The notes beneath the pieces were generated by a model. That model worked only from the letters and a program-made list of their open reading frames with translations, made no database searches and was not told the origin of the DNA. A program made the position numbers and the translations under genes. Source: Halobaculum gomorrense (lineage in GTDB: Archaea > Halobacteriota > Halobacteria > Halobacteriales > Haloferacaceae). From it: a stretch of DNA of 64,000 bases. The stretch covers positions 1 through 64,000 of the forward strand of contig NZ_FQWV01000002.1 in NCBI RefSeq assembly GCF_900129775.1. Reading direction: 5' to 3'. Positions within the stretch are counted from its first letter, which is position 1, and each line of letters starts with the position of its first letter. This document shows, piece after piece, positions 12,668 to 24,277 of the stretch.

Positions 12668-14356
12668 TCACCGCGATCCGTGGCGCTCGAATCCGTCCGC
12701 CAGCGTCGACGCCTCGACCGACAGCACCGTCGGCCGCCCGTGCGGACACGCGTACGGCTGGTCGCACTCGCCGAGCCGCTCGACCAGCCGTCCCGCCGTC
12801 TCGCGATCGAGCGCGTCGCCCGCCTTCAGCGACGGGTGACACGCCAGGTCCGCGAGCAGGGCCTCCCGGAGGGCGTCGGTGCCGCCGCGCCCGCCCGAGT
12901 CGCGGAGGTCGGCGGCGACCCCGCACAGCGCCGCCGCGTCGGCGACGCGCCCCAGCGGCGCCGGCACCGCCGTGACGCGGTAGGTGGTTCCGCCGAAGGG
13001 GTCGACCGAGAAACCGAGCGTCGCGAGGTCCTCGCGGTGCTCCTCCACGGCCGCCGCCGTCGGCGGGTCGAGCGTCACCGTCTCCGCCGGGTCCAACGCG
13101 GCCGACGGCACCGCTTCGTCCGACAGCGCCGTCCGGAGGCGCTCGAAGTTGACGCGCTCGTGGGCGGCGTGCTGGTCGACAACGAGCAGGTCATCGCCGG
13201 CCTCACAGACGACGTACAGGTCCCGGAAGACGCCCAGCACGGTCGCGTCGGCGAACTCGGAGTCGGTTCCCTCGACGGGCGCCAACGAGGAGTCCAGATC
13301 CATCGCCACCTCGCCCGACCGGCGGAGGTCGGCGGTTGTCAGTGCCTCGCACACGCCCGTTTCGACCGCGTCGGCGACGGCGTCGGCACCGCGGATCGCG
13401 ACCCGCGCCTTCGCGGGGTGGACGTTCGGGTCGACCGCCCACGCGGGCAGATCGATGCGGACGACGGCGACCGGTTCGCGGCCGCTCGGGAGGAGACTTC
13501 CGTAGCCGCGGGCGACGGCGCGCCGGAGGGCGTCGTCGCGCACCGGCCGTCCGTTCACCGCGACGTGGACGTGATCGCGCGTCGATCTGGTCGTGGAGGG
13601 GTAACAGAGCCGTCCCTCGACCGCGAGGTTGGCCGCGCGGTCTGCGAGGTCGACGCCGGAGCGGTGGGTGACCGCCGTCGACTCGCCACCGGTCTCGCGG
13701 CCGTACAGCGCGACGAGCGCGTCCCTGAGTCCGGTTCCGGGCGTCGACGCCGTCTCCCGACCGTCGTGTTCGAGCGAGAACGCCACCTCGGGCCGGGCGA
13801 GCGCATACGCCGTGAGCAGTTCCGACACGCGGCCGAACTCCCGGGCGGGCGAGGCCAGCGACTCCCGGCGGGCGGGCCGGTCGCCGAACAGGTCCGTCAC
13901 GACGACCGTGGTGCCGCGGGCGCGTCCGGCGTCCTCGATCCGCTTGTCCCCGTCCGTGATGGTCACGCGCGTCCCAACGGGCGAGCCGTCGCTCGTCACG
14001 AGTTCGATGTCGCCCGCGTCGGCGATCGCCGCCAGCGCCTCGCCGCGAAAGCCCATCGTGGTCGCCTCCCGGAGGTCGTCGGCCGCCCGGATCTTGCTCG
14101 TCGTGTGCGGCTCGACCGCGCGGGCGGCGTCCTCGCGGGCCATCCCGCGGCCGTCGTCGGCGACGCGGACCCGTTCGGTGCCGTCGCCGTCGACCGACAC
14201 GTCGACCCGGTCGGCGCCGGCGTCGAGGGCGTTCTCCACGAGCTCGGCGACCACGCGGGCCGGGCGGGTGATCACCTCGCCGGCGGCGATGCGCTCGACG
14301 GTGGCCTCGGACAGTTCGCGGACCGCGGGGGCGTCGGTCTCGGCGTCGCGGCTCAC
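12668..14356 (-). CDS. mutL: DNA mismatch repair endonuclease MutL
   Basis: 562 residues, GTG start overlapping the mutS stop by 4 bases (GTGA). The N-terminal GHKL ATPase has VAELVENALDAGADRV (motif I), DDGRGM (motif II) and TMGFRGEALAAI (motif III). The C-terminal region carries the metal-dependent nicking motif DQHAAHERVNFE, matching DQHA(X)2E(X)4E, and the accessory ACPHGRPT motif, so strand nicking should be active and no separate MutH is needed. Length is normal for archaeal/bacterial MutL. It is expressed with mutS. Confidence 0.95.
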   Translation of the reverse strand: MSRDAETDAPAVRELSEATVERIAAGEVITRPARVVAELVENALDAGADRVDVSVDGDGTERVRVADDGRGMAREDAARAVEPHTTSKIRAADDLREATTMGFRGEALAAIADAGDIELVTSDGSPVGTRVTITDGDKRIEDAGRARGTTVVVTDLFGDRPARRESLASPAREFGRVSELLTAYALARPEVAFSLEHDGRETASTPGTGLRDALVALYGRETGGESTAVTHRSGVDLADRAANLAVEGRLCYPSTTRSTRDHVHVAVNGRPVRDDALRRAVARGYGSLLPSGREPVAVVRIDLPAWAVDPNVHPAKARVAIRGADAVADAVETGVCEALTTADLRRSGEVAMDLDSSLAPVEGTDSEFADATVLGVFRDLYVVCEAGDDLLVVDQHAAHERVNFERLRTALSDEAVPSAALDPAETVTLDPPTAAAVEEHREDLATLGFSVDPFGGTTYRVTAVPAPLGRVADAAALCGVAADLRDSGGRGGTDALREALLADLACHPSLKAGDALDRETAGRLVERLGECDQPYACPHGRPTVLSVEASTLADGFERHGSR

Positions 14357-17139
14357 GGTCTTCCACCGTCGAGTGTGGCGTCGTCGTCAGTGTCGTCGCG
14401 GTCACCGTCGCCGGCCTCCGCGGCGCGCCGCTGGAGGTCGTGAAGTCGGTTCAGTGCCTCCAGCGGCGTCGTCTCCGCGAGTGGGAGGTCACGGAGGTCA
14501 GCGAGGAGGTCCGCGACCGCGTCGTCGCGGACGGCGGGCGGGCCGGCGTCTTTGTCGCCGTCCCGCTCCCCGTCGCCACGATCGTGCCCGTTCGTCGCCA
14601 CCTCGGCGAGCGTCCGTTGGCCGTCGCCGCCGGCCGCCTCGCCGTCGTCGGTGCCGGCGGGGTCGGGCGGTGACTCGGCGCCGTCGCCCCCGCCGCCCTC
14701 GCGGTCGGCGGCGACAAGGTCGTGTGCGCGGGCGACGACCGGGTCCGGAACGCCCGCCAGCTCCGCGACCTCGACGCCGTACGACGAGGAGGCGGCGCCC
14801 TCGCGGACCCGGTGGAGGAACGTCACCTCGCCGTCGCGCTCGGCCGCCGCGAAGTGGCGGTTCACCACGCGGTCGTACTCGTCGGCCAGGTCCGTCAGTC
14901 CGTGGTAGTGGGTCGCAAAGAGTGTCGTCGCGCCCGTCTCGTCGTGGAGGAACTCGACGGCCGCGCGGGCGATTGCCCGGCCGTCGGTCGTCGACGTGCC
15001 CCGGCCGACCTCGTCGAGTACGACCAGCGAGTCGGCGGTCGCGTCGTGGAGCACGTCCGTCAGCTCGCGCATCTCGCGCATGAACGTCGACTCGCCGCCG
15101 GCGATGTCGTCGCTGGCGCCGACGCGGGTGAACACGCGGTCGACCACGGGGAGGCGCGCGGCGTCGGCGGGCACGAAGGAGCCGGCCTGCGCGAGCACGA
15201 CCGCGAGCGCCACCTGCCGCATGTACGTCGACTTCCCGCTCATGTTCGGCCCGGTGATCAGCGCGACGGTCCCGCGCGGGAGGGCAGCGTCGTTCGGGAC
15301 GAACTCCGCGGCAGTCTCCTCGACCACCGGGTGTCGAGAGCGCTTCAGGCGGATCTCGTCGACGTCCGCGCCGACCTCGGGACGGACGTAGTCGCGCTCG
15401 ACGGCGGCGGTCGCGAGGGCGGCGAGGGCGTCGACGCGGGCGACGGCGTCCGCGAGTGCGCCGATCCGGTCGGACTCGACGGCGACCCCCTCGCGCAGGT
15501 CGACAAACAGCTCGTACTCCAGCGCGTCGGCGCGCTCGTCGGCGCCGAGGATCTCGTCCTCACGGCGTTTCAGCTCGGGCGTGTAGAACCGCTCGGAGTT
15601 CTTCAGCGTCTGGCGGCGGGTGTAGTCGTCGGGCACCTTGTCGAGCTGGCCGTTCGTCACCTCGATGTAGTAGCCGTGGACCTGGGTGTAGCCGACCTCG
15701 AGGGTGTCGATCCCCGTGCGCTCGCGCTCGCGCTCCTCCAGCTCCGCGATCCACTCGCGCCCCTCGCGGGCGGTCGTCCGGATCTCGTCGAGCTCGTCGT
15801 CGTAGCCCGCGCGGATCACGCCGCCGTCGGTGATCTCCTGTGGCGGGTCCTCGGCGACGGCGGCGTCGATCAGCTCGCGGAGGTCGTCAAGCGGGTCGAG
15901 GTCGGCGCGCACGTCCGCGAGCGCGTCGACGCCCGCGAGCGCCTCGCGGACCGCTGGCACCGCCGCGAGCGTGTCGTGGAGCGACCGGAGGTCGCGGGCG
16001 TTCGCCCGCCCGCGGGAGACCCGACCGGCGAGGCGTTCGAGGTCGTACGCCGCCGAGAGCGCCTCGCGGACGTCCTCGCGGACGAGCGTGCGCTCGGCGA
16101 ACGCCGCGACGGCGTCGTGGCGCGCCTCGATGGCCTCGCGGTCGACGAGCGGCCGGCGCAGCCACGCTCGGAGGCGCCGGCGACCCAGCGCCGAGCGCGT
16201 CTCGTCGAGTGTGTCGAACAGCGTCCGTCCGGAGCCGACGTGGTTCTCGAACAGTTCCAGTCCCCTGAGGGCGGTCGCGTCGAGGCGCAGCGACCGCCGC
16301 GGGTCATACCGGCGGACGCGGCGGACGTACTCGAGGGGGCCGTCGTCGCCCTGCGTGTACTCGGCGTACGACAGCAGCGCGCCGGCGGCGACGCGCTCGG
16401 CGGCGTCGAAGCGGTCGGGGTCGGCGTAGCGGTCGAGCACCGCGCCGGCGGCGTCGGGCGCGAACTTGCCGGCGTCTCGCTCGGTGACCATGCAGTCGGC
16501 GCCGTCGACGACGCCGGGGTCGACGCCGGGGCCGCCGAGGAGTTCCGCGGGGTCGATCCGCGCGAGTTCCTCGTCGACGGCGGCGGCGTCGCCGGCCGTG
16601 ACGGCGCACTCGCCGGTCGACACGTCGACGTGGGCGACGCCGTAGGTCGGACCGTCGCGGGCGCCGTCCCCGCCGGCCTCGGCGGCGCTGTCATCGCTTC
16701 CCCCGTCCGCGGTCGCCACGCAGGCGACGTACGTGTTCGACCCCTCCGCGAGCAATTCCTCCTCGACGACCGTGCCGGGCGTGAGCACCTGCGTGACCGC
16801 TCGCTCGACCAGCCCGGAGGCCTCCTCGGGGTCCTCCACCTGGTCGGCGACGGCGACGCGGTACTCGGCGTCGAGCAGGCGCTTCAGGTACTTCGGGGCG
16901 TTGTCGACGGGGATGCCGCAGGCGGTGTAGGTGCCGGTGGAGTCCTCGCGCTCGATCCGAGTGAGCTCGCAGACGCGCGCGACCTCGTCGGCCGCCTCGC
17001 AGAACGCCTTGTAGAAGTCGCCGACGCGAAACAGGACGACCGCGTCGTCGTACCGCTCGGCGACCTCGACGTACTGCGCGAGCATCGGCGTCAGCTCCTC
17101 CCGGCGGTCGAGCATCGTCGCCGGCGCTCCAGTGATCAT
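14353..17139 (-). CDS. mutS: DNA mismatch repair protein MutS
   Basis: 928 residues (start ATG 17139; an in-frame ATG at 17115 is an alternative). Domain order is mismatch-binding, connector, lever/clamp, then ATPase with Walker A GPNMSGKSTYMRQ and the LDEVGRGTSTTDG block, and an acidic disordered stretch (about residues 820-890) before the C-terminal dimer helix. In the mismatch-reading Phe-X-Glu motif the glutamate is replaced: VGDFYKAF, F42-Y43-K44 (codon AAG), where E. coli has FYE. Glutamate contacts the mismatched base in well studied MutS, so specificity may differ. Followed by mutL with a 4-base overlap. Confidence 0.95.
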   Translation of the reverse strand: MITGAPATMLDRREELTPMLAQYVEVAERYDDAVVLFRVGDFYKAFCEAADEVARVCELTRIEREDSTGTYTACGIPVDNAPKYLKRLLDAEYRVAVADQVEDPEEASGLVERAVTQVLTPGTVVEEELLAEGSNTYVACVATADGGSDDSAAEAGGDGARDGPTYGVAHVDVSTGECAVTAGDAAAVDEELARIDPAELLGGPGVDPGVVDGADCMVTERDAGKFAPDAAGAVLDRYADPDRFDAAERVAAGALLSYAEYTQGDDGPLEYVRRVRRYDPRRSLRLDATALRGLELFENHVGSGRTLFDTLDETRSALGRRRLRAWLRRPLVDREAIEARHDAVAAFAERTLVREDVREALSAAYDLERLAGRVSRGRANARDLRSLHDTLAAVPAVREALAGVDALADVRADLDPLDDLRELIDAAVAEDPPQEITDGGVIRAGYDDELDEIRTTAREGREWIAELEERERERTGIDTLEVGYTQVHGYYIEVTNGQLDKVPDDYTRRQTLKNSERFYTPELKRREDEILGADERADALEYELFVDLREGVAVESDRIGALADAVARVDALAALATAAVERDYVRPEVGADVDEIRLKRSRHPVVEETAAEFVPNDAALPRGTVALITGPNMSGKSTYMRQVALAVVLAQAGSFVPADAARLPVVDRVFTRVGASDDIAGGESTFMREMRELTDVLHDATADSLVVLDEVGRGTSTTDGRAIARAAVEFLHDETGATTLFATHYHGLTDLADEYDRVVNRHFAAAERDGEVTFLHRVREGAASSSYGVEVAELAGVPDPVVARAHDLVAADREGGGGDGAESPPDPAGTDDGEAAGGDGQRTLAEVATNGHDRGDGERDGDKDAGPPAVRDDAVADLLADLRDLPLAETTPLEALNRLHDLQRRAAEAGDGDRDDTDDDATLDGGRP

Positions 17140-17281
17140 CGTCGTTGGTTGCCAGCGGGCGGGCGAGCGGCGAAAGGGTTTCGCACCGGGTCGGTCCGCC
17201 TTGCGGCGGTCTGCTCCGTCCCGCTCTCCGTTGGCTCTGCCGGGACGGCGTGGTGGCGCCGCGGCGCGACCGCGTCGCCGT

Positions 17282-19531
17282 TCAGATCCCGATCCCGTCG
17301 TCGCCGGCGGCGTCCCACTCCCAGTGTTCGCCGGTCAGGCGGGCCGACGAGCGCCGCACGCCCGCGTCGTCGAGTCCCTCGGCGTCGGTGAAGCCGTACG
17401 TCGGCGGCTCGTACTCGTTGGGGTCGGTGAACGCCTCGTTCCTGCGGAACCGCCGCGCGACCAACAGGACGGGCGTGCCGCCGGCCGCCTCGCCCGACAG
17501 CTCCCGGAGTTGCTCCAGTCGGTACCACTGCGGGACGCGCTCGCGGAGCTTCTCACCGAAGCGGGTGTCGCGGAAGCGGCCGGCGACGCGCAGCGCGAGC
17601 GTGCCGTTCTCCGCGAGCCAGTCGCTCGCGCGCTCGACGTACAGCGCGGACGTGTCGTAGGTGTAGTACGCCGCCTCGTACTCGGCGTACGCGTCGGCGA
17701 CCGGGCCGTCGGCCACGTCGCGCCGCAGCGTCGCCGGGGGCGCCCCGACCACGTAGTCGTAGTCCTCGCGCGCCAGCGGGGCCGGCGCGCCGTCGCCGGC
17801 GTCGCCCTCCCGGATCAGCGGGTCGCTGCAGTACACCGGGAGCGGGTCGAGGGCCACACCCGGGTCCGTAGACCGCGCGGCCCGGTAGTCGCCGAGCAGC
17901 CGCAACAGCAGCCGCGTCTCGGTCACGCGACACGCCAGCGGGTCCGGGCTGGCGCCCGTCAGCCGCTCCCGGACGGCCCGCAGTCGCTCGACCGGCTCGG
18001 CGTCTGCGAGCCCGGACCGGAGCCGGTCGGCGGCCGCGAGCAGGTACCGGCCGTCGCCGACGGCGGGGTCGAGCAGGTCGCCGCCGAGCGGGGTCGCCTC
18101 GGCGTCCGCGTCCGCACTCCCGCCCGATCGCGCTCCGGCGTCGGCGTCCGCGGCCGCCGAGGCGCCGTAGCCGGCGGCGTCGAGCAGCGCCTCGGGCAGC
18201 GGGTCCGGCGCGGCGGGGTCGGTGTCGACGCCGTGCAGCCCCGCCACCGACAGCAGGCGGTCGTACGCGGCGACCGCGCGGCCGTGGTCGCCGTCGAACG
18301 AGAAGTGATCGAGGTAGCCGACCGTCCGTGCGAGCGCCTCGCAGACGCCGTCGTCGTCGAGCGCCCACCCGGCGAGGTCCGGCGCGCGCCGGTCGTACAC
18401 CGCGGTCCGTCGCTCCCGGGCCAGCGCCAGCAGGTCGCCGGCGTCGCGGTCGACGCCGGCCTCTTCGGCGAACGCCGTCAGGCGGTCGAGCGCGTCGCCC
18501 GTCGCGGCCGCTGCGACGAGGTCCGCGCCGGCGAACACCCGGTCGAGCAGCGCCTCCTCGACCACCTGGAAGGCGACGACCCGGGCGAACGCGCGGCGGT
18601 TCTCCGAGGGCGTGAAGCCCGTCCGCCCGGCGCCGCGGACCCACGTGCCGTAGGCGGCCCGCAGCGCCCGCGCGTCGGCGTGGGCGCGCTCGTGAGCGAG
18701 CAGTCGCGCCCGGGCGGGCCCGGCGGCGGTCTCGTCGCCGTCGCCGCGCCGGGCCGCGCGGACGGCGTCCCGAAGCTCGGCCGCGCGCTCGTCGTAGCCC
18801 TCGATGTCGTCGACGAGCCGCGCCTGTGCCGCCTCGACCGCTGGCGCGAGCAGGTCGGTCAGGCAGTCGCGCAGCGTCCCCACGAGCGTGTTCAGCCCGT
18901 CGTCGTCGGCGACGGAGCGGCGCGCGGGCGCGCCGGTGTTCCCGGTTCCGGCGTCGCCGTCGGCGTCGACGGCGGACACCTCCGCCGGCCGCAGCGCCGT
19001 CAGCTTCGCAACCGCAAGCTGCTGGGCCGGGCGGAGCGTCTGCGAGAGGCGCCCGCTGCGGCCGGCGGCGACGATCCGCGCCAGCGGGATCTCGGTGTGG
19101 GTGACAGCCGTCACGCCGGCGACCGTGCGGCGCTCGTCCGCGCCCTCGCCCTTGGCCTCGTCGGGCTCGACGCGCTCGAAGACGAGCAGCCGGTCGAAGC
19201 CGCCGGCCGCGACGTACCGCACGGTCGGCTCGGCGCTGGCGGCCTCGAACGCCGCGAACACCGCGGCGCCCACGTCGTCGGCGTCGCGCCCGGCGGCGGC
19301 GAACGTCACCGCCACGTCGCCGTCGGCGTCACGGACCCGCGCGACGCGCCCGTCGAGGTCGTACGCGGTCGGGTCGTACCCGAGCACGTCGCCGAACAGC
19401 GCCGCACACAGCGTCGCCGCGACGGTCTCGGCGCCGGCGTCGGCGCCAAGCGTCGCCTCGGCCCGGTCGGCCGCCTCGACGACGCGCTCTACGAAGCCCT
19501 GTCCGTACGAACCGTGTGGGGCACCTGACAT
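17282..19531 (-). CDS. Large protein resembling a type IIG/Eco57I-like DNA methyltransferase with degenerate catalytic motif
   Basis: 749 residues from the ATG at 19531. The C-terminal half reads like an N6-adenine methyltransferase of the Eco57I/type IIG group: motif I-like LLDPAVGDGRYLLAAADRL (D488 onward), a segment YCSDPLIREGD, and a motif-IV-like YDYVVGAPPATL where the usual NPPY is APPA (A597-P598-P599-A600). After this come LRVAGRFRDTRFGEKLRERV and a C-terminal target-reading-like region. The N-terminal 200 residues contain a nuclease-domain-like stretch without clear catalytic residues. It lies 142 bases upstream of mutS on the same strand. As written it should not methylate DNA; a binding role is possible. 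Confidence 0.55.
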   Translation of the reverse strand: MSGAPHGSYGQGFVERVVEAADRAEATLGADAGAETVAATLCAALFGDVLGYDPTAYDLDGRVARVRDADGDVAVTFAAAGRDADDVGAAVFAAFEAASAEPTVRYVAAGGFDRLLVFERVEPDEAKGEGADERRTVAGVTAVTHTEIPLARIVAAGRSGRLSQTLRPAQQLAVAKLTALRPAEVSAVDADGDAGTGNTGAPARRSVADDDGLNTLVGTLRDCLTDLLAPAVEAAQARLVDDIEGYDERAAELRDAVRAARRGDGDETAAGPARARLLAHERAHADARALRAAYGTWVRGAGRTGFTPSENRRAFARVVAFQVVEEALLDRVFAGADLVAAAATGDALDRLTAFAEEAGVDRDAGDLLALARERRTAVYDRRAPDLAGWALDDDGVCEALARTVGYLDHFSFDGDHGRAVAAYDRLLSVAGLHGVDTDPAAPDPLPEALLDAAGYGASAAADADAGARSGGSADADAEATPLGGDLLDPAVGDGRYLLAAADRLRSGLADAEPVERLRAVRERLTGASPDPLACRVTETRLLLRLLGDYRAARSTDPGVALDPLPVYCSDPLIREGDAGDGAPAPLAREDYDYVVGAPPATLRRDVADGPVADAYAEYEAAYYTYDTSALYVERASDWLAENGTLALRVAGRFRDTRFGEKLRERVPQWYRLEQLRELSGEAAGGTPVLLVARRFRRNEAFTDPNEYEPPTYGFTDAEGLDDAGVRRSSARLTGEHWEWDAAGDDGIGI

Positions 19532-19839
19532 GTCTCGCACCCGAATCGGATACCCCTCCAAATCGGACCCACGTAATCCTTTCTCAGTCGACCGGCCGCG
19601 ATCGGTGTGGTCATCGGGCGAGTTCCACCCGAAACGGTCGGGTTTGGTTCCCGCCGGCCCGGTCGTCCCCGGTCGGCTCCCGAGCGCTCGGTACCGCTCC
19701 GGATCGCCCTCGTCGACGGCTCGGTGTGTCCCACGTCCACATGCGGCAGAGTTAGGTCCGTCCGGCTCTTGTCATGGGCTGTGAACGGCACCCAGAGGGC
19801 CCGCATCCGGGTGTATTCTTCCGCCGGGGTGTGCGCCGC
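19532..19839. promoter_or_regulatory. Divergent intergenic region
   Basis: 308 bases between the methyltransferase-like gene (leftward) and the MoxR operon (rightward). On the right, a gtgtattctt box at 19811-19820 lies 20-29 bases before the GTG start of the MoxR gene, the spacing of a leaderless haloarchaeal promoter. On the left, minus-strand AT-rich boxes occur at 19544-19556 and 19571-19581. I see no credible gene, repeat or structured RNA in the middle. Confidence 0.45.
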
Positions 19840-20838
19840 GTGAGCGACGCAGAGGCGGAGCCAGAGACCGACCGCGACGCCGCGGACCGAGACGGCGCGT
19901 CCCACGACCTCGCACCGCTGCCCGTGACGGAGGCGGCCGACCTCGTCGAGCGCGTCGCCGACAACGTCTCCCGGGTCATCGTCGGCAACGACGCCGCCGT
20001 CGAACACATCCTCGTGACAGTGCTCGGCCGGGGCCACCTCCTCTTGGAGGACGTGCCCGGCGTCGGCAAGACGATGCTCGCTCGCGCGCTCGCGACCTCG
20101 GTCGACTGCGAGTTCAAACGCGTCCAGTTCACGCCCGACCTCCTCCCGTCGGACGTGACCGGCATCAACGTGTACAACCAGAAGACCGGCGAGTTCGAGT
20201 TCCGCCCGGGGCCGGTGTTCGCGAACATCGTCCTCGGCGACGAGATCAACCGCGCGCCGCCGAAGACGCAGTCGGCGCTGCTGGAGGCGATGGAGGAGGG
20301 GCAGGTGACCGTCGACGGCGTCACCCGCCGGCTCCCGGACCCCTTCACGGTCATCGCGACGCAAAACGACGTGGAGCCGGGGCGCACCTACGAGCTCCCG
20401 CTCGCGGAGATCGACCGCTTCATGAAGAAGCTCCGGCTCGGCTACCCCGACCGGGCCGACGAGACGGAGATCCTCAGCCGAACCGCGGGCGAACACCCGA
20501 TCGAGTCGCTGGAGCCGGTCGCGACCACCGAAGAACTGCGCCGCGCCCGCGCCACTGTCGGCGAGGTGGGCGTCTCCGAGCCGGTGCGCGAGTACGTCAC
20601 CGACCTGGCGACGTACACCCGCGAGCACGCCCAGCTCGGCGTGAGCCCCCGCGGGAGCATCGCACTCGTTCGCGCCTCGCAGGCCCGCGCCGTCATCGAC
20701 GGCCGCGACTACGTCGTCCCCGACGACGTGCAGACTGAGGCGCGGTCGGTGTTCGCCCACCGCGTCCGTCCCCGGACGGGCAGCGAGTCCGGTCTCGACG
20801 TGGTCGAGGACGCCCTCTCGTCGGTGACCGTCGAGTAG
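19840..20838 (+). CDS. MoxR-family AAA+ ATPase
   Basis: 332 residues from the GTG at 19840, chosen because a TATA-like box sits 20-29 bases upstream; longer in-frame starts lack support. It has the AAA+ Walker A (EDVPGVGKTML), Walker B (GDEINRAPPKTQSALLEAME), the sensor 1 segment (VIATQNDVE) and the MoxR LPLAEIDRFMKKL motif. MoxR proteins act as chaperones that activate or assemble partner proteins, often with VWA/DUF58 proteins. The next gene is DUF58, 2 bases downstream. Confidence 0.93.
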   Translation: MSDAEAEPETDRDAADRDGASHDLAPLPVTEAADLVERVADNVSRVIVGNDAAVEHILVTVLGRGHLLLEDVPGVGKTMLARALATSVDCEFKRVQFTPDLLPSDVTGINVYNQKTGEFEFRPGPVFANIVLGDEINRAPPKTQSALLEAMEEGQVTVDGVTRRLPDPFTVIATQNDVEPGRTYELPLAEIDRFMKKLRLGYPDRADETEILSRTAGEHPIESLEPVATTEELRRARATVGEVGVSEPVREYVTDLATYTREHAQLGVSPRGSIALVRASQARAVIDGRDYVVPDDVQTEARSVFAHRVRPRTGSESGLDVVEDALSSVTVE

Positions 20839-20840
20839 CA

Positions 20841-21944
20841 ATGCGGCTCACCCGCCGCGGGAAGGCGGTCGTCGGCGTCGCCGCGGTCGCCGTCGCCTCG
20901 GGGCTCGCGTTCGGTCCCCGCTCGCTCAACGCCGTCGTCGTGCCCGCCGTCGTCGCGTTGAGCGCCGCGTACCTCCAACTGCGCTGGGTCGAGTCGCCCG
21001 CGGTCGCCCGCGCCGTCCCGCCCGACGACCACGTCGGGCGGACGCACCCCGTCCGGCTGTTCTTCGGCGACCGCGACGGCCCGCGCCCGAGCGCCGAGTC
21101 GGGGATGGACCGCCCGTTCGCCGGCGCCGTCCGGGAGCGGATGGGCGACGGGCTCGACACCGACCGGGTCGCCTTCGAGACGGTCGTCGGCGCGACGCCC
21201 GTCGAGTACGAGGTGACCTACGAGGCGCGCGGGCGCCACCGGCTCGGCCCCGCCGAGGTGACGGCCCGCGACGCGCTCGGCCTCGCGGCGGTCGACCTCC
21301 CGACGACGGAGACGACCGAGGTGCTCGTCTACCCCGAGGTCCACGCCATCGCCGGCTGGGCGCGGCGCGACCTGCGCGCGCTCCACGAGACGGGCGTTCA
21401 CGAGGAGCGCCGCGAGTTCGACCGCCTCCGCGAGTACGACCGCGGCGACTCGCTGCGCGACGTGCACTGGAAGTCGACCGCCAAGCGCGACGACCTCATC
21501 GTGAAGGAGTTCTCCGCGGAGGCGGAGACGGAGGCGGTCTCCCTCGCCGCCGGCGCCGCCGCGGCCCCTGGCGCCGCCGACGGCATGGCCGAGGCGACCG
21601 CCAGCCTCACGCTCGCGCTCGTCGAGGACGGCGTCCCGGTCGACGTGCGCCTCCCGGACGGCACGCTCACCGTCTCCGGCGAGCGCGGCAGCCAGGTGCG
21701 CCTGCTCGAACGGCTCGCGGTGATCGGCCCCGGCCGCGTCGCCGACGCGGACGCCGACATCACCGTCTACGGCGAGGCCGACCGCGTGCGCGTCTCCGTC
21801 CCCGGCGAGGACCGCGACTTCGCCGACTTCCGCTCGGACCGCCCCACGACGTACGGCGTCTCGCGGCCCGACCCGCGCCTCGACGCCGACCGCGCGGGGC
21901 GGGAGGGCCGCGGGACCGTCGAGGACGGGGAGGTGGTCGCGTGA
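20841..21944 (+). CDS. DUF58 domain protein
   Basis: 367 residues. Two N-terminal hydrophobic helices (AVVGVAAVAVASGLAFG; LNAVVVPAVVALSAAYLQL) are followed by a DUF58 domain with the signature EFDRLREYDRGDSLRDVHW and KSTAKRDDLIVKEF. The family is normally encoded with MoxR and a transglutaminase-like protein, as here; the trio is thought to handle envelope proteins. It overlaps the next gene by 4 bases. Confidence 0.9.
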   Translation: MRLTRRGKAVVGVAAVAVASGLAFGPRSLNAVVVPAVVALSAAYLQLRWVESPAVARAVPPDDHVGRTHPVRLFFGDRDGPRPSAESGMDRPFAGAVRERMGDGLDTDRVAFETVVGATPVEYEVTYEARGRHRLGPAEVTARDALGLAAVDLPTTETTEVLVYPEVHAIAGWARRDLRALHETGVHEERREFDRLREYDRGDSLRDVHWKSTAKRDDLIVKEFSAEAETEAVSLAAGAAAAPGAADGMAEATASLTLALVEDGVPVDVRLPDGTLTVSGERGSQVRLLERLAVIGPGRVADADADITVYGEADRVRVSVPGEDRDFADFRSDRPTTYGVSRPDPRLDADRAGREGRGTVEDGEVVA

Positions 21945-24277
21945 GCACGCCCGTCGGCGACCGCTTCGGCGCCATGGGGGATGGGAGCGCCGATCGCGGG
22001 GAGTCCTCCGGCCGACGCGGCGGCGAGGGAGGCGACGGGCGCAGTTCGGGCCGCTACTCGCTGTCCGGGGCGGTCCGGAACCCGGCTGCGCTCGGCGTTG
22101 GTCTCGCTGTCGCGTCGTTTCTCACGGTGTTCTACCATGTCGTCGACGTGGTCGGCGGCGCGACGTTCCTCCTCATGGAGGTGGCGCTCGTCGCCGCCGC
22201 GGCCGCGTGGCTCGGCGGCTTCCTCCGCGAGCGGACCGCCGTCGGCCTCACCGCCGTCGGCTTCGCGCTCGCGCTGATCGGCTACTTCCTGTCGGTGCCG
22301 CCGTCGGCGCGCGCGCTGTTCACCGTCGGCCGCGTCGCCGCCGACGTGCTCGCGCTGCTCACCGGGCTGTCGGTGCTGCGGCTGCTCAACGCCGGCGCGT
22401 GGGCGCTGTTTCTCGTCCCGGTCCCGACGTTCCTCGCGACGTACCTCCTCGTGCGCCGGCGGTACGCCCTCGCGGCGACTGTCGCCGCCGGCACGACCGG
22501 CTTCTTTCTGCTCACCGGCGACGCCGGCGTGGGCGTCGGCCTCGCGGCCGCCGTCGGCCTCACGCTCGCGGTCGGCTTCTCGGAGCTGGCCGCGGCCGGG
22601 CGCTCCGGCGTGCAGTGGGACACGATCGCGGTGGTCGTCGCCGCGATGATCGTCGTCACCTCCGTCGTCACCGTCGTCCCCGGGAGCGCGGCGAACCCGG
22701 TGCTCCCCGGCGGCGCCTCGCCGACCGTCGAGTCGAGCCTGGTCGCGAACACCGAGTCCGTGGGCGTGCTCGGCAGCATCCGCCTGTCCCCGACGGTCCG
22801 CTTCACGGTCGAGGCCGACGAGTCGGCGTACTGGCGCGTCGGCTCGTACGACCGCTACACCGGCGGTCGGTGGGTCCGGACCGGCGAGGCCAGTCCGTAC
22901 ACCGGCTCCGGATCGCTGGGAGCGCCCCCCGGCGAGAGCGAGCGGCTCGTCCAGCGGGTGACCGCGCGCGGGAAACTCGACGCGCTGCCGGCGGCGTGGA
23001 AGCCGGTCGAACTCCGCGGGCGCGCCGCCGACACCGCGCAGGTCACCGATCACGGCGGACTCAATCCGGGGACGACGCTACTGGCGAACGACACCTACAC
23101 CGTCGTCAGCCAGCGGCCGACCGCCACGCCAGGGGAACTTCGCCGCGCGGGAACGGACTACCCGTCCGCGATCGCCTCGCGGTACACCCAGTTGCCACAG
23201 AGCACGCCCGACCGGGTCGGCGAGCGCACCGCCGCGGTGATCGACCAGGCGGGGGCGTCGAACCCCTACGAGGCGGCGGTCGCCATCGAGCGCTACCTCG
23301 AACGGACGAAAGAGTACTCGCTGCAAGTGCCGACCCCGCAAGGGAACACCGCCGACGCGTTCCTGTTCGAGATGGAGTCGGGCTACTGCGTCTACTTCGC
23401 GACGACGATGGTCGCGATGCTGCGCACGCAGGGCGTTCCCGCCCGATTCGTCACCGGCTACACGTCCGGCCAGCAGGTCAGCGAGGACACGTACGTGGTC
23501 CGCGGCCTCGACTCGCACGCGTGGGTCGAGGTGTACTTCCCCGGCCACGGGTGGATCCGCTTCGACCCGACGCCGTCGGGCCCACGCGAGCAGGCCGAGC
23601 GGGTCAGCGTCGAGGCCGCCCGCGAGGCGGGCGCTGAGGGCGTCGACGCCGCGGGTTCGGCCGACGGGACCTACGAGACACCGACGCCGACCCCGGCCCC
23701 CGGCTCCGGAACGACGACGGGGGTCGGCACGCCCGACATCGGTGCGATCCGACCCGGGGCAGACGAGTTCGGCAACGCGACCGTCACCTTCGCGGGCGGT
23801 CTCACCGCGAACGCCACGCCCGCGGGCGCCGGCGGCGGGGGCGATGACGGCCCAGAGGGGTGGACGCCCACCCGCGAGGACGTCGCCGTCGGCGCCGCGG
23901 CGCTGGTCGGACTCGTCGCCGGCGCGCGCCGCGTCGGCCTGACGGGTCGGGTCAGGCGGACGGCCTGGCTGCTCCACCAGTCGCGCGCCGACCCCGACAC
24001 GGACGCCGAGCGGGCGTTCCGGCGCCTGGAGTACCTCGCGTCGGTTGTCTACCGCTCGCGCCGCCCCGGCGAGACGCCCCGGCAGTACGTCGAGGCGCTC
24101 TCTCGCGATCGGTTCGGCGAGTCCGCCCGTACCGTCGCCGACGTGTACGAGCGCGCCCGCTACGGCGGCGGCGTCGACGAGTCGGCCGCCCGCGAGGCGG
24201 TCGAGGCCGTCGACGACCTCGTCCGCCAGCACGCGCCCGTCCTCCGCCGGCTGGGCGGGGCGGGCGCGCGTGCGTGA
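21941..24277 (+). CDS. Membrane transglutaminase-like protein (DUF3488 / transglutaminase core / DUF4129)
   Basis: 778 residues. Six or more N-terminal membrane helices (about residues 45-235) precede a large external region with the transglutaminase core: catalytic Cys in ESGYCVYFATTMVAMLRTQG, His in LDSHAWVEVYF, Asp in IRFDPTPSG. A Pro/Thr-rich linker, a further helix (VAVGAAALVGLVAGA) and a C-terminal DUF4129 region (RAFRRLEYLA...RRPGETPRQYV) complete the TgpA-like architecture. The catalytic triad is present. A GTG start overlaps the DUF58 stop (GTGA). Acts on the outer side of the membrane; substrates unknown. Confidence 0.92.
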   Translation: MSTPVGDRFGAMGDGSADRGESSGRRGGEGGDGRSSGRYSLSGAVRNPAALGVGLAVASFLTVFYHVVDVVGGATFLLMEVALVAAAAAWLGGFLRERTAVGLTAVGFALALIGYFLSVPPSARALFTVGRVAADVLALLTGLSVLRLLNAGAWALFLVPVPTFLATYLLVRRRYALAATVAAGTTGFFLLTGDAGVGVGLAAAVGLTLAVGFSELAAAGRSGVQWDTIAVVVAAMIVVTSVVTVVPGSAANPVLPGGASPTVESSLVANTESVGVLGSIRLSPTVRFTVEADESAYWRVGSYDRYTGGRWVRTGEASPYTGSGSLGAPPGESERLVQRVTARGKLDALPAAWKPVELRGRAADTAQVTDHGGLNPGTTLLANDTYTVVSQRPTATPGELRRAGTDYPSAIASRYTQLPQSTPDRVGERTAAVIDQAGASNPYEAAVAIERYLERTKEYSLQVPTPQGNTADAFLFEMESGYCVYFATTMVAMLRTQGVPARFVTGYTSGQQVSEDTYVVRGLDSHAWVEVYFPGHGWIRFDPTPSGPREQAERVSVEAAREAGAEGVDAAGSADGTYETPTPTPAPGSGTTTGVGTPDIGAIRPGADEFGNATVTFAGGLTANATPAGAGGGGDDGPEGWTPTREDVAVGAAALVGLVAGARRVGLTGRVRRTAWLLHQSRADPDTDAERAFRRLEYLASVVYRSRRPGETPRQYVEALSRDRFGESARTVADVYERARYGGGVDESAAREAVEAVDDLVRQHAPVLRRLGGAGARA

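What the first reader, a model, noticed from the sequence alone, without database searches (positions are those of the whole stretch)
17282..19531. Dead DNA methyltransferase relative beside mutS-mutL
A 749-residue protein keeps a motif-I-like DPAVGDG and the type IIG layout, but the NPPY catalytic motif is APPA (597-600). It lies just upstream of mutS on the same strand. A non-catalytic DNA reader next to mismatch repair could guide strand choice or repair, or be a remnant of a restriction enzyme kept for another role.
Basis: partly seen in the sequence, partly recalled or inferred. Interest (0 to 1): 0.65.

Follow-up and report, generated by a model that had tools for sequence, protein, structure and literature searches.

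The report
Dead restriction enzyme beside moxR
A protein in salt-loving archaea descends from a DNA-cutting and DNA-marking defence enzyme, but both catalytic sites and its DNA-recognition part are gone; it has nevertheless been kept beside a membrane-protein machine (moxR), so it was probably given a new, non-enzymatic job unrelated to mismatch repair.

Summary
In detail: minus-strand 17282-19531 encodes 749 aa with DPAVGDG (488-494) and APPA (597-600) where active-type relatives have NPPY, 142 bp upstream of mutS-mutL. The protein is more degenerate than noted. Its ~1200-aa haloarchaeal relatives carry an HsdR-like nuclease region, an Eco57I methylase and a TaqI-type specificity domain, with ExK and NPPY intact. 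In all 14 aligned short proteins ExK and NPPY are gone and the C-terminal specificity region is missing. The short proteins form one clade (100/100), occur in 17 of 170 genomes of the family, and show dN/dS 0.22-0.40. The mutS link is genus-level only (8 of 17). All 17 instead sit divergently beside moxR-DUF58-transglutaminase. The mutS-moxR neighbourhood also exists without the gene in relatives. Trees fit one acquisition, vertical descent and about seven losses. The SAM-binding loop is the most conserved stretch; motif IV is average. Best reading: a domesticated, doubly dead type IIG-like restriction enzyme kept as a non-catalytic SAM/ligand-binding scaffold or regulator, tied by position to moxR rather than to mismatch repair. 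Identity is well supported; function is inferred.

The parts
17282..19531 (-). Pseudo-restriction-methylation protein (called MTL here), 749 aa
   Evidence: Open frame; Eco57I-like; orthologues in 17 of 170 family genomes; AlphaFold2 pLDDT 83.5
18956..19495 (-). aa 13-192: PD-(D/E)XK-like N-terminal domain without catalytic residues
   Evidence: Model pLDDT 89.1; nearest structures by VIA-align are nuclease domains of restriction enzymes DrdV Z 8.4, EcoR124I HsdR Z 6.9, BpuSI Z 6.5; Foldseek alone not significant (best E 0.51)
19283..19303 (-). aa 77-83 FAAAGRD: position of the ExK nuclease motif (E-A/G-K in 5 of 5 aligned long relatives), E and K lost
17303..18232 (-). aa 434-743: N6-adenine methyltransferase fold
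   Evidence: VIA-align to CamA Z 23.9, 246 aligned, rmsd 2.9
18050..18070 (-). aa 488-494 DPAVGDG: SAM-binding motif I, most conserved 7-residue window of the protein between clades
17732..17743 (-). aa 597-600 APPA at the catalytic motif IV (NPPY) position
19532..19773 (.). Divergent intergenic region between MTL and moxR (242 bp; moxR may start somewhat further downstream)
19774..20838 (+). moxR (AAA_3 E 7.8e-60; also above the cut-off of bpMoxR, 29.3 vs 27 bits)
20841..21944 (+). DUF58 protein
21941..24277 (+). Transglutaminase-like protein (Transglut_core E 9.7e-30, TgpA_N, DUF4129); relatives in 359 of 391 Halobacteria genomes
14353..17139 (-). mutS (neighbour; not judged part of the system)
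12668..14356 (-). mutL (neighbour; not judged part of the system)

Best explanation
The gene is a domesticated, doubly inactivated descendant of a type IIG-like restriction-modification enzyme. One ancestral gene settled next to moxR in the common ancestor of at least four haloarchaeal genera. It lost the nuclease catalytic residues, the methylation motif IV and the C-terminal specificity region, and has since been inherited vertically, kept under purifying selection in some lineages and dropped in others. Shown: homology, double motif loss, truncation, single clade, constant divergent adjacency to moxR-DUF58-transglutaminase. Inferred: it works without catalysis, as a protein that still binds SAM or a similar ligand in the retained motif-I pocket and acts as a scaffold or regulator, most plausibly of or with the divergently transcribed MoxR-DUF58-transglutaminase machine. 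No step in mismatch repair is proposed.
For: Full-length alignment to ~1200-aa relatives at 27-32% identity. Those relatives have Eco57I (up to 4.5e-33), TaqI_C (1.6e-12) and weak HSDR_N_2 matches (3.3e-5, just under cut-off), and ExK and NPPY in 5 of 5 aligned rows. In 14 of 14 aligned short proteins no NPPY/DPPY-type motif exists, and neither the E nor the K of ExK. Short proteins are one clade, support 100/100. dN/dS is 0.22-0.40 in 9 pairs, against 0.22-0.23 for mutS and 0.11-0.24 for moxR. moxR is divergently adjacent in 17 of 17 carriers. The moxR-operon tree places all 17 carriers in one clade of 25 rows, with 7 losses needed for one gain; branching of g8, g17, g6 and g1 is the same in both trees. 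Motif I is at the 100th percentile of between-clade conservation, motif IV at the 61st.
Against: Adjacency to moxR may be only inheritance of one insertion, so it does not prove function together. The gene is lost repeatedly (absent from 3 of 11 genomes of its genus, one with a short remnant), so it is dispensable. dN/dS is somewhat higher than for its neighbours, compatible with weak constraint. SAM binding is doubtful in the window's own genus: the motif-II acidic residue is S, and motif-III D is N in 2 of 7 rows. Motif I may be conserved for folding alone. The carrier clade in the operon tree has SH-aLRT 87, not starred. No expression or biochemical data exist here.
Confidence: 0.5

Rival explanations
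1. Slow relic: the protein has no present function. It is a defence gene decaying since an ancient insertion, still open in some genomes because decay is slow.
For: Repeated loss, about 7 in the operon tree; remnant of about 58 residues in G340; dN/dS above that of neighbours in comparable pairs.
Against: Frames are open and full-length in 15 of 17 carriers; the two broken ones (G385, G400) are genomes of 85% and 79% completeness in which neighbouring genes are split too. dN/dS stays well below 1 in 9 of 9 pairs, and motif I is nearly unchanged across clades at 33% overall identity.
Confidence: 0.2
2. Decoy or immune accessory: the dead enzyme still offers a methylase/nuclease-like surface that titrates viral anti-restriction proteins (DNA mimics) or partners with active restriction enzymes elsewhere in the genome.
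For: Its closest folds include BrxX and type I methylases solved in complex with the DNA mimic Ocr; patchy retention resembles defence genes. A published analysis proposes that dead nuclease domains act as sensors (PMC12839542, passages).
Against: No defence genes were recognised beside it; the locus is housekeeping in character (moxR operon in 359 of 391 genomes). Descent is vertical rather than by transfer. No relative in viral contigs at tblastn E 1e-3 (1 scan).
Confidence: 0.15
3. Mismatch-repair accessory: a DNA-binding pseudo-methylase that guides strand choice for the adjacent MutS-MutL.
For: Same strand, 142 bp upstream of mutS; adjacent to mutS in 8 of 8 carriers of the window's genus.
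Against: No mutS beside it in 8 of 9 carriers outside the genus, and on the opposite strand in the ninth. mutS-mutL-moxR adjacency without it in 11 of 20 sampled relatives and in 3 congeners. Specificity domain lost. mutS and mutL themselves were reported dispensable for mutation rate in Halobacterium salinarum (PMC2816208, abstract).
Confidence: 0.05
4. Still an enzyme: altered motif IV (APPA, RFPA, DAPT) supports a different methyl transfer, for instance to protein or RNA.
For: Motif I is strictly kept and the fold is intact.
Against: Motif IV differs between clades without a common replacement (APPA, APPT, SPPA, RFPA, AFPA, RFPT, DPPN, DAPT), unlike a new catalytic motif.
Confidence: 0.07

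Closest known systems
Type IIG restriction-modification enzymes (Eco57I/TaqI-type methylase fused to a PD-(D/E)XK nuclease; e.g. DrdV, BpuSI)
   Same: Order of N-terminal nuclease-like fold, helical region and gamma-type N6-methylase fold; homology to ~1200-aa haloarchaeal members over nearly the whole short protein.
   Different: ExK and NPPY lost in all aligned short members; specificity domain missing; chromosomal position fixed beside moxR.
BREX methylase PglX/BrxX
   Same: Weak sequence match (NCBIfam BREX_2_MTaseX 16.5 bits against a cut-off of 400) and fold (BrxX Z 22.0, rmsd 6.0).
   Different: No NPPY; score far below the cut-off; neighbours identified are mutS-mutL and moxR-DUF58-transglutaminase, none a BREX gene.
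Inactive REase sensors in BREX-related helicases (PMC12839542)
   Same: PD-(D/E)XK fold with all catalytic residues lost but steadily retained.
   Different: There a domain of a helicase; here fused to a dead methylase and not in a defence island.
MoxR-vWA-sensor ternary conflict systems (PMC12839542, passages)
   Same: An inactive enzyme-like protein beside a MoxR ATPase; this MoxR passes the bpMoxR cut-off.
   Different: This moxR-DUF58-transglutaminase operon is near-universal in the class and mostly lacks the dead protein; no vWA match was returned for DUF58.

Membership tests
Type IIG restriction-modification enzyme | Gamma-type N6-adenine methylase fold | tested here: met
   CamA Z 23.9, M.TaqI Z 19.5; Pfam Eco57I E 2.5e-5, just under cut-off for the query, above it for orthologue G190
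Type IIG restriction-modification enzyme | SAM-binding motif I | tested here: met
   DPAVGDG or DPACGDG in 14 of 14 aligned short proteins; binding itself untested
Type IIG restriction-modification enzyme | Catalytic motif IV (N/D/S)PP(Y/F) | tested here: not met
   0 of 14 short proteins; present in 15 of 15 long homologues of the tree
Type IIG restriction-modification enzyme | PD-(D/E)XK nuclease fold at the N terminus | tested here: inconclusive
   VIA-align best DrdV Z 8.4, then other restriction nucleases; Foldseek best E 0.51; long relatives match HSDR_N_2 just under cut-off
Type IIG restriction-modification enzyme | ExK nuclease residues | tested here: not met
   E and K absent from 14 of 14 short proteins, present in 5 of 5 aligned long relatives
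Type IIG restriction-modification enzyme | Target-recognition (TaqI_C-type) domain | tested here: not met
   TaqI_C at ~865-1020 in 3 of 3 long relatives scanned; short proteins end near 730-810 aa and 5 of 5 scanned give no TaqI_C match
BREX methylase PglX | Score above the family cut-off | tested here: not met
   16.5 of 400 bits
Mismatch-repair accessory gene | Conserved linkage to mutS across lineages | tested here: not met
   Same-strand mutS neighbour in 8 of 17 carriers, all one genus
MoxR-vWA-sensor ternary system | MoxR ATPase of that kind | tested here: met
   bpMoxR 29.3 bits against 27; AAA_3 scores far better
MoxR-vWA-sensor ternary system | vWA partner fused to an effector | tested here: inconclusive
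   Partner is DUF58 (28.1 bits, cut-off 23.4) plus a separate transglutaminase-like protein; no vWA model matched at E 0.01. That DUF58 resembles vWA is recalled, not tested
MoxR-vWA-sensor ternary system | Physical or functional coupling of the third component | not testable with these tools
   Only gene order is available

The most novel reading that the evidence does not exclude
A dead restriction enzyme has become the sensor of a MoxR-DUF58-transglutaminase membrane machine: the former SAM/DNA-handling body binds a cue (SAM level, nucleotide or invading DNA/protein) and sets the activity or expression of the divergently encoded MoxR complex. This would be a domesticated immune enzyme serving as a regulatory subunit of a housekeeping AAA+ system.
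Probability: 0.12. Interest if true: 0.75.

Novelty: new variant of a known kind. Interest (0 to 1): 0.45.

Why it matters
Dead restriction genes are usually read as short-lived debris. Here one dead lineage, with both catalytic centres and the specificity domain lost, forms a single clade that has been inherited through at least four genera with purifying selection and a constant chromosomal neighbour. That makes it a concrete, testable example of a restriction enzyme turned into a non-enzymatic cellular protein, and gives a handle on the poorly understood MoxR-DUF58-transglutaminase operon of haloarchaea.

Tried and rejected
Mismatch-repair role: rejected as the main reading because mutS adjacency is confined to one genus and the mutS-moxR neighbourhood exists without the gene.

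Active methylase of BREX or type I: rejected on motif IV and scores.

Recent pseudogene or sequencing error: rejected for the family; only G385 and G400 are broken, in low-completeness genomes where neighbouring genes are split as well.

Hidden MTL in carriers' relatives: tblastn of the short proteins against 24 loci from 23 genomes lacking it found a remnant only in G340; the two hits in L124 (E 0.043 and 0.095) were taken as chance. The 1.9-kb mutS-moxR gap of G120 holds unrelated reading frames.

G408 (g3, 716 aa frame) looked like a further short member by profile, but it keeps EAKR and NPPY and is not by moxR, so it was not counted. Carriers of 1e-60 matches not counted as short members: G077, G408, G204, G347, G345 (5 of 22).

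No PDB sequence relative at E 1. Plasmids: 3 records, none covering 80% of the query. Viral contigs: none. Genome contigs: one locus, Halobaculum saliterrae.

Literature: no description of this family was seen in the listings of the 8 searches made, nor for the terms looked up in PMC6471742, PMC5867850, PMC10609329, PMC12839542 and PMC5898192 (passages only). PMC2816208: abstract only. This does not show that it is unpublished.

Limits: in the operon tree I used 23 genomes without the gene, of which 20 were chosen mainly by transglutaminase similarity, not at random. Tree method there was 'quick'. Dropped rows: G385 was left out of A1, A2, the MTL tree and the motif counts because it is frameshifted; G412 and G400 were found later and are not in those alignments; five near-duplicate long homologues were dropped before the MTL tree. 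Carrier counts rest on genomes held by the tool; completeness varies.

Full report
Observation. The frame lies on the minus strand, 17282-19531, 749 aa from an ATG. DPAVGDG is at 488-494 and APPA at 597-600. mutS starts 142 bp downstream and overlaps mutL. Sequence libraries give only weak methylase matches: Pfam Eco57I 24.9 bits against a cut-off of 25.3, PADLOC MTase_II 1.8e-10, NCBIfam BREX_2_MTaseX 16.5 bits against 400, no PDB chain by sequence. The AlphaFold2 model is confident (mean pLDDT 83.5) and its C-terminal half matches N6-adenine methylases: CamA Z 23.9 over 246 residues, M.TaqI Z 19.5.

What the relatives show. A search of 391 Halobacteria genomes found close orthologues and a second set of ~1200-aa proteins matching at about 27-32% over most of the query. 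Three of these long proteins were scanned: all have Eco57I (4.5e-33 to 3.2e-28), N6_Mtase, TaqI_C near 865-1020, and weak HSDR_N matches near 55-124, just below cut-off. Five aligned long proteins carry E-A/G-K in the N-terminal region, DPACGSG and NPPY. They are type IIG-like restriction-modification enzymes by layout; their activity was not tested.

Two dead centres and a lost domain. In the 14 short proteins aligned (window; 6 of its genus g1; 2 of g6; 1 of g17; 4 of g8), none has an (N/D/S)PP(Y/F/W/H) motif. The motif IV position reads APPA, APPT, SPPA, RFPA, AFPA, RFPT, DPPN or DAPT. The E and K of the nuclease motif are absent from all 14. The N-terminal domain folded alone (pLDDT 89.1) is most like nuclease domains of restriction enzymes, DrdV Z 8.4, HsdR 6.9, BpuSI 6.5, though Foldseek alone gave nothing significant (best E 0.51), so the nuclease ancestry rests mainly on alignment to the long relatives. 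The short proteins are 729-809 aa, apart from the 782-aa G279 whose start is uncertain, and lack the TaqI_C region.

One origin, vertical descent, repeated loss. In a 29-row tree the 14 short proteins are one clade against 15 long ones (100/100). In the whole family (170 genomes) 22 match the profile at 1e-60; 17 are short members: 8 in g1 (of 11 genomes), 3 in g6, 5 in g8, 1 in g17; the other 5 are long-type. In a tree of moxR, DUF58 and transglutaminase from 40 genomes, all 17 carriers fall in one clade with 8 non-carriers (SH-aLRT 87), and the order g8, g17, then g6 and g1 is the same as in the MTL tree. One gain and seven losses explain the pattern (8 changes). G340 keeps a short remnant between moxR and mutS.

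Selection. Nei-Gojobori dN/dS is 0.22-0.40 in nine MTL pairs; mutS gives 0.22-0.23 in three pairs, moxR 0.11-0.24 in five. The gene is constrained, but in comparable pairs less than its neighbours. Between clades, motif I is the most conserved seven-residue window of the protein, motif IV is at the 61st percentile, motif II at the 97th and the former ExK site at the 91st. The motif-II acidic residue is kept in g8 and g17 but is S or T in g1 and g6, so SAM binding in the window's own protein is uncertain.

Neighbourhood. moxR-DUF58-transglutaminase is divergently adjacent in all 17 carriers (window; 14 loci; 2). mutS follows on the same strand in 8 of 17, all g1. Of the nine others, eight have no mutS in the ~20-kb stretch read, and G412 has mutS-mutL nearby in opposite orientation. 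Of 20 relatives without MTL, 11 have mutS divergent to moxR (in G120 with a 1.9-kb gap holding other frames), as do the 3 non-carrier congeners. So MTL seems to have entered between moxR and its older neighbours; its mutS adjacency is then a by-product of place. The moxR operon is far older and wider: transglutaminase relatives in 359 of 391 genomes. Constant adjacency by descent from one insertion does not by itself prove a joint function; that MTL stayed with moxR while mutS did not is suggestive only.

Mechanism. Committed reading: a non-catalytic scaffold or regulator that may bind SAM or a related ligand, acting on or with the MoxR machine. Shown: dead motifs, truncation, single clade, constraint, position. 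Inferred: ligand binding, partner, regulation. Published work proposes that dead REase domains act as nucleotide sensors, and describes MoxR-vWA systems with an inactive sensor component (PMC12839542, passages); this MoxR passes the bpMoxR cut-off. mutS and mutL are reported dispensable for mutation rate in Halobacterium salinarum (PMC2816208, abstract), which further lowers the mismatch-repair idea.

Verdict. The thing works unlike a type IIG enzyme and fails three defining features of that family (motif IV, ExK, specificity domain), although it descends from it. It is a new variant of a known kind: a domesticated pseudo-restriction enzyme. The organism is probably a Halobaculum: the only named orthologue locus is Halobaculum saliterrae, whose contig has the same length as a contig of the same-genus genome G293.

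Noticed in passing
window 17140-19773; L115, L046, L112, L114: The space between mutS and moxR seems open to insertion: MTL in some genomes, unrelated frames (HTH-like and CPBP-like by eye) in G120, nothing in others.
   Followed up: partly
L039, L043 and other g8 loci: In g6 (G311) and g8 a gene that looks by eye like threonine synthase (thrC) lies just beyond MTL; in G042 and G073 (g8, no MTL) a similar frame lies directly beside moxR. This supports the same insertion place, but the gene was not identified by any search.
   Followed up: no
G000:C5:509467-512193: A second, more distant mutS paralogue (46% identity) in the own genome; the matched frame shows one TGA inside the aligned stretch. 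Similar paralogues occur in the other genomes of the genus searched.
   Followed up: no
L141:8708-10855 (G408): A 716-aa frame of the NPPY-bearing long family, with EAKR and NPPY intact but without the C-terminal specificity region in that frame; possibly split or frameshifted.
   Followed up: partly
window aa 741-749 of MTL (17285-17311): The acidic C-terminal tail ending GIGI or similar is conserved within the genus and kept in the G340 remnant, but absent from g6 and g8.
   Followed up: no
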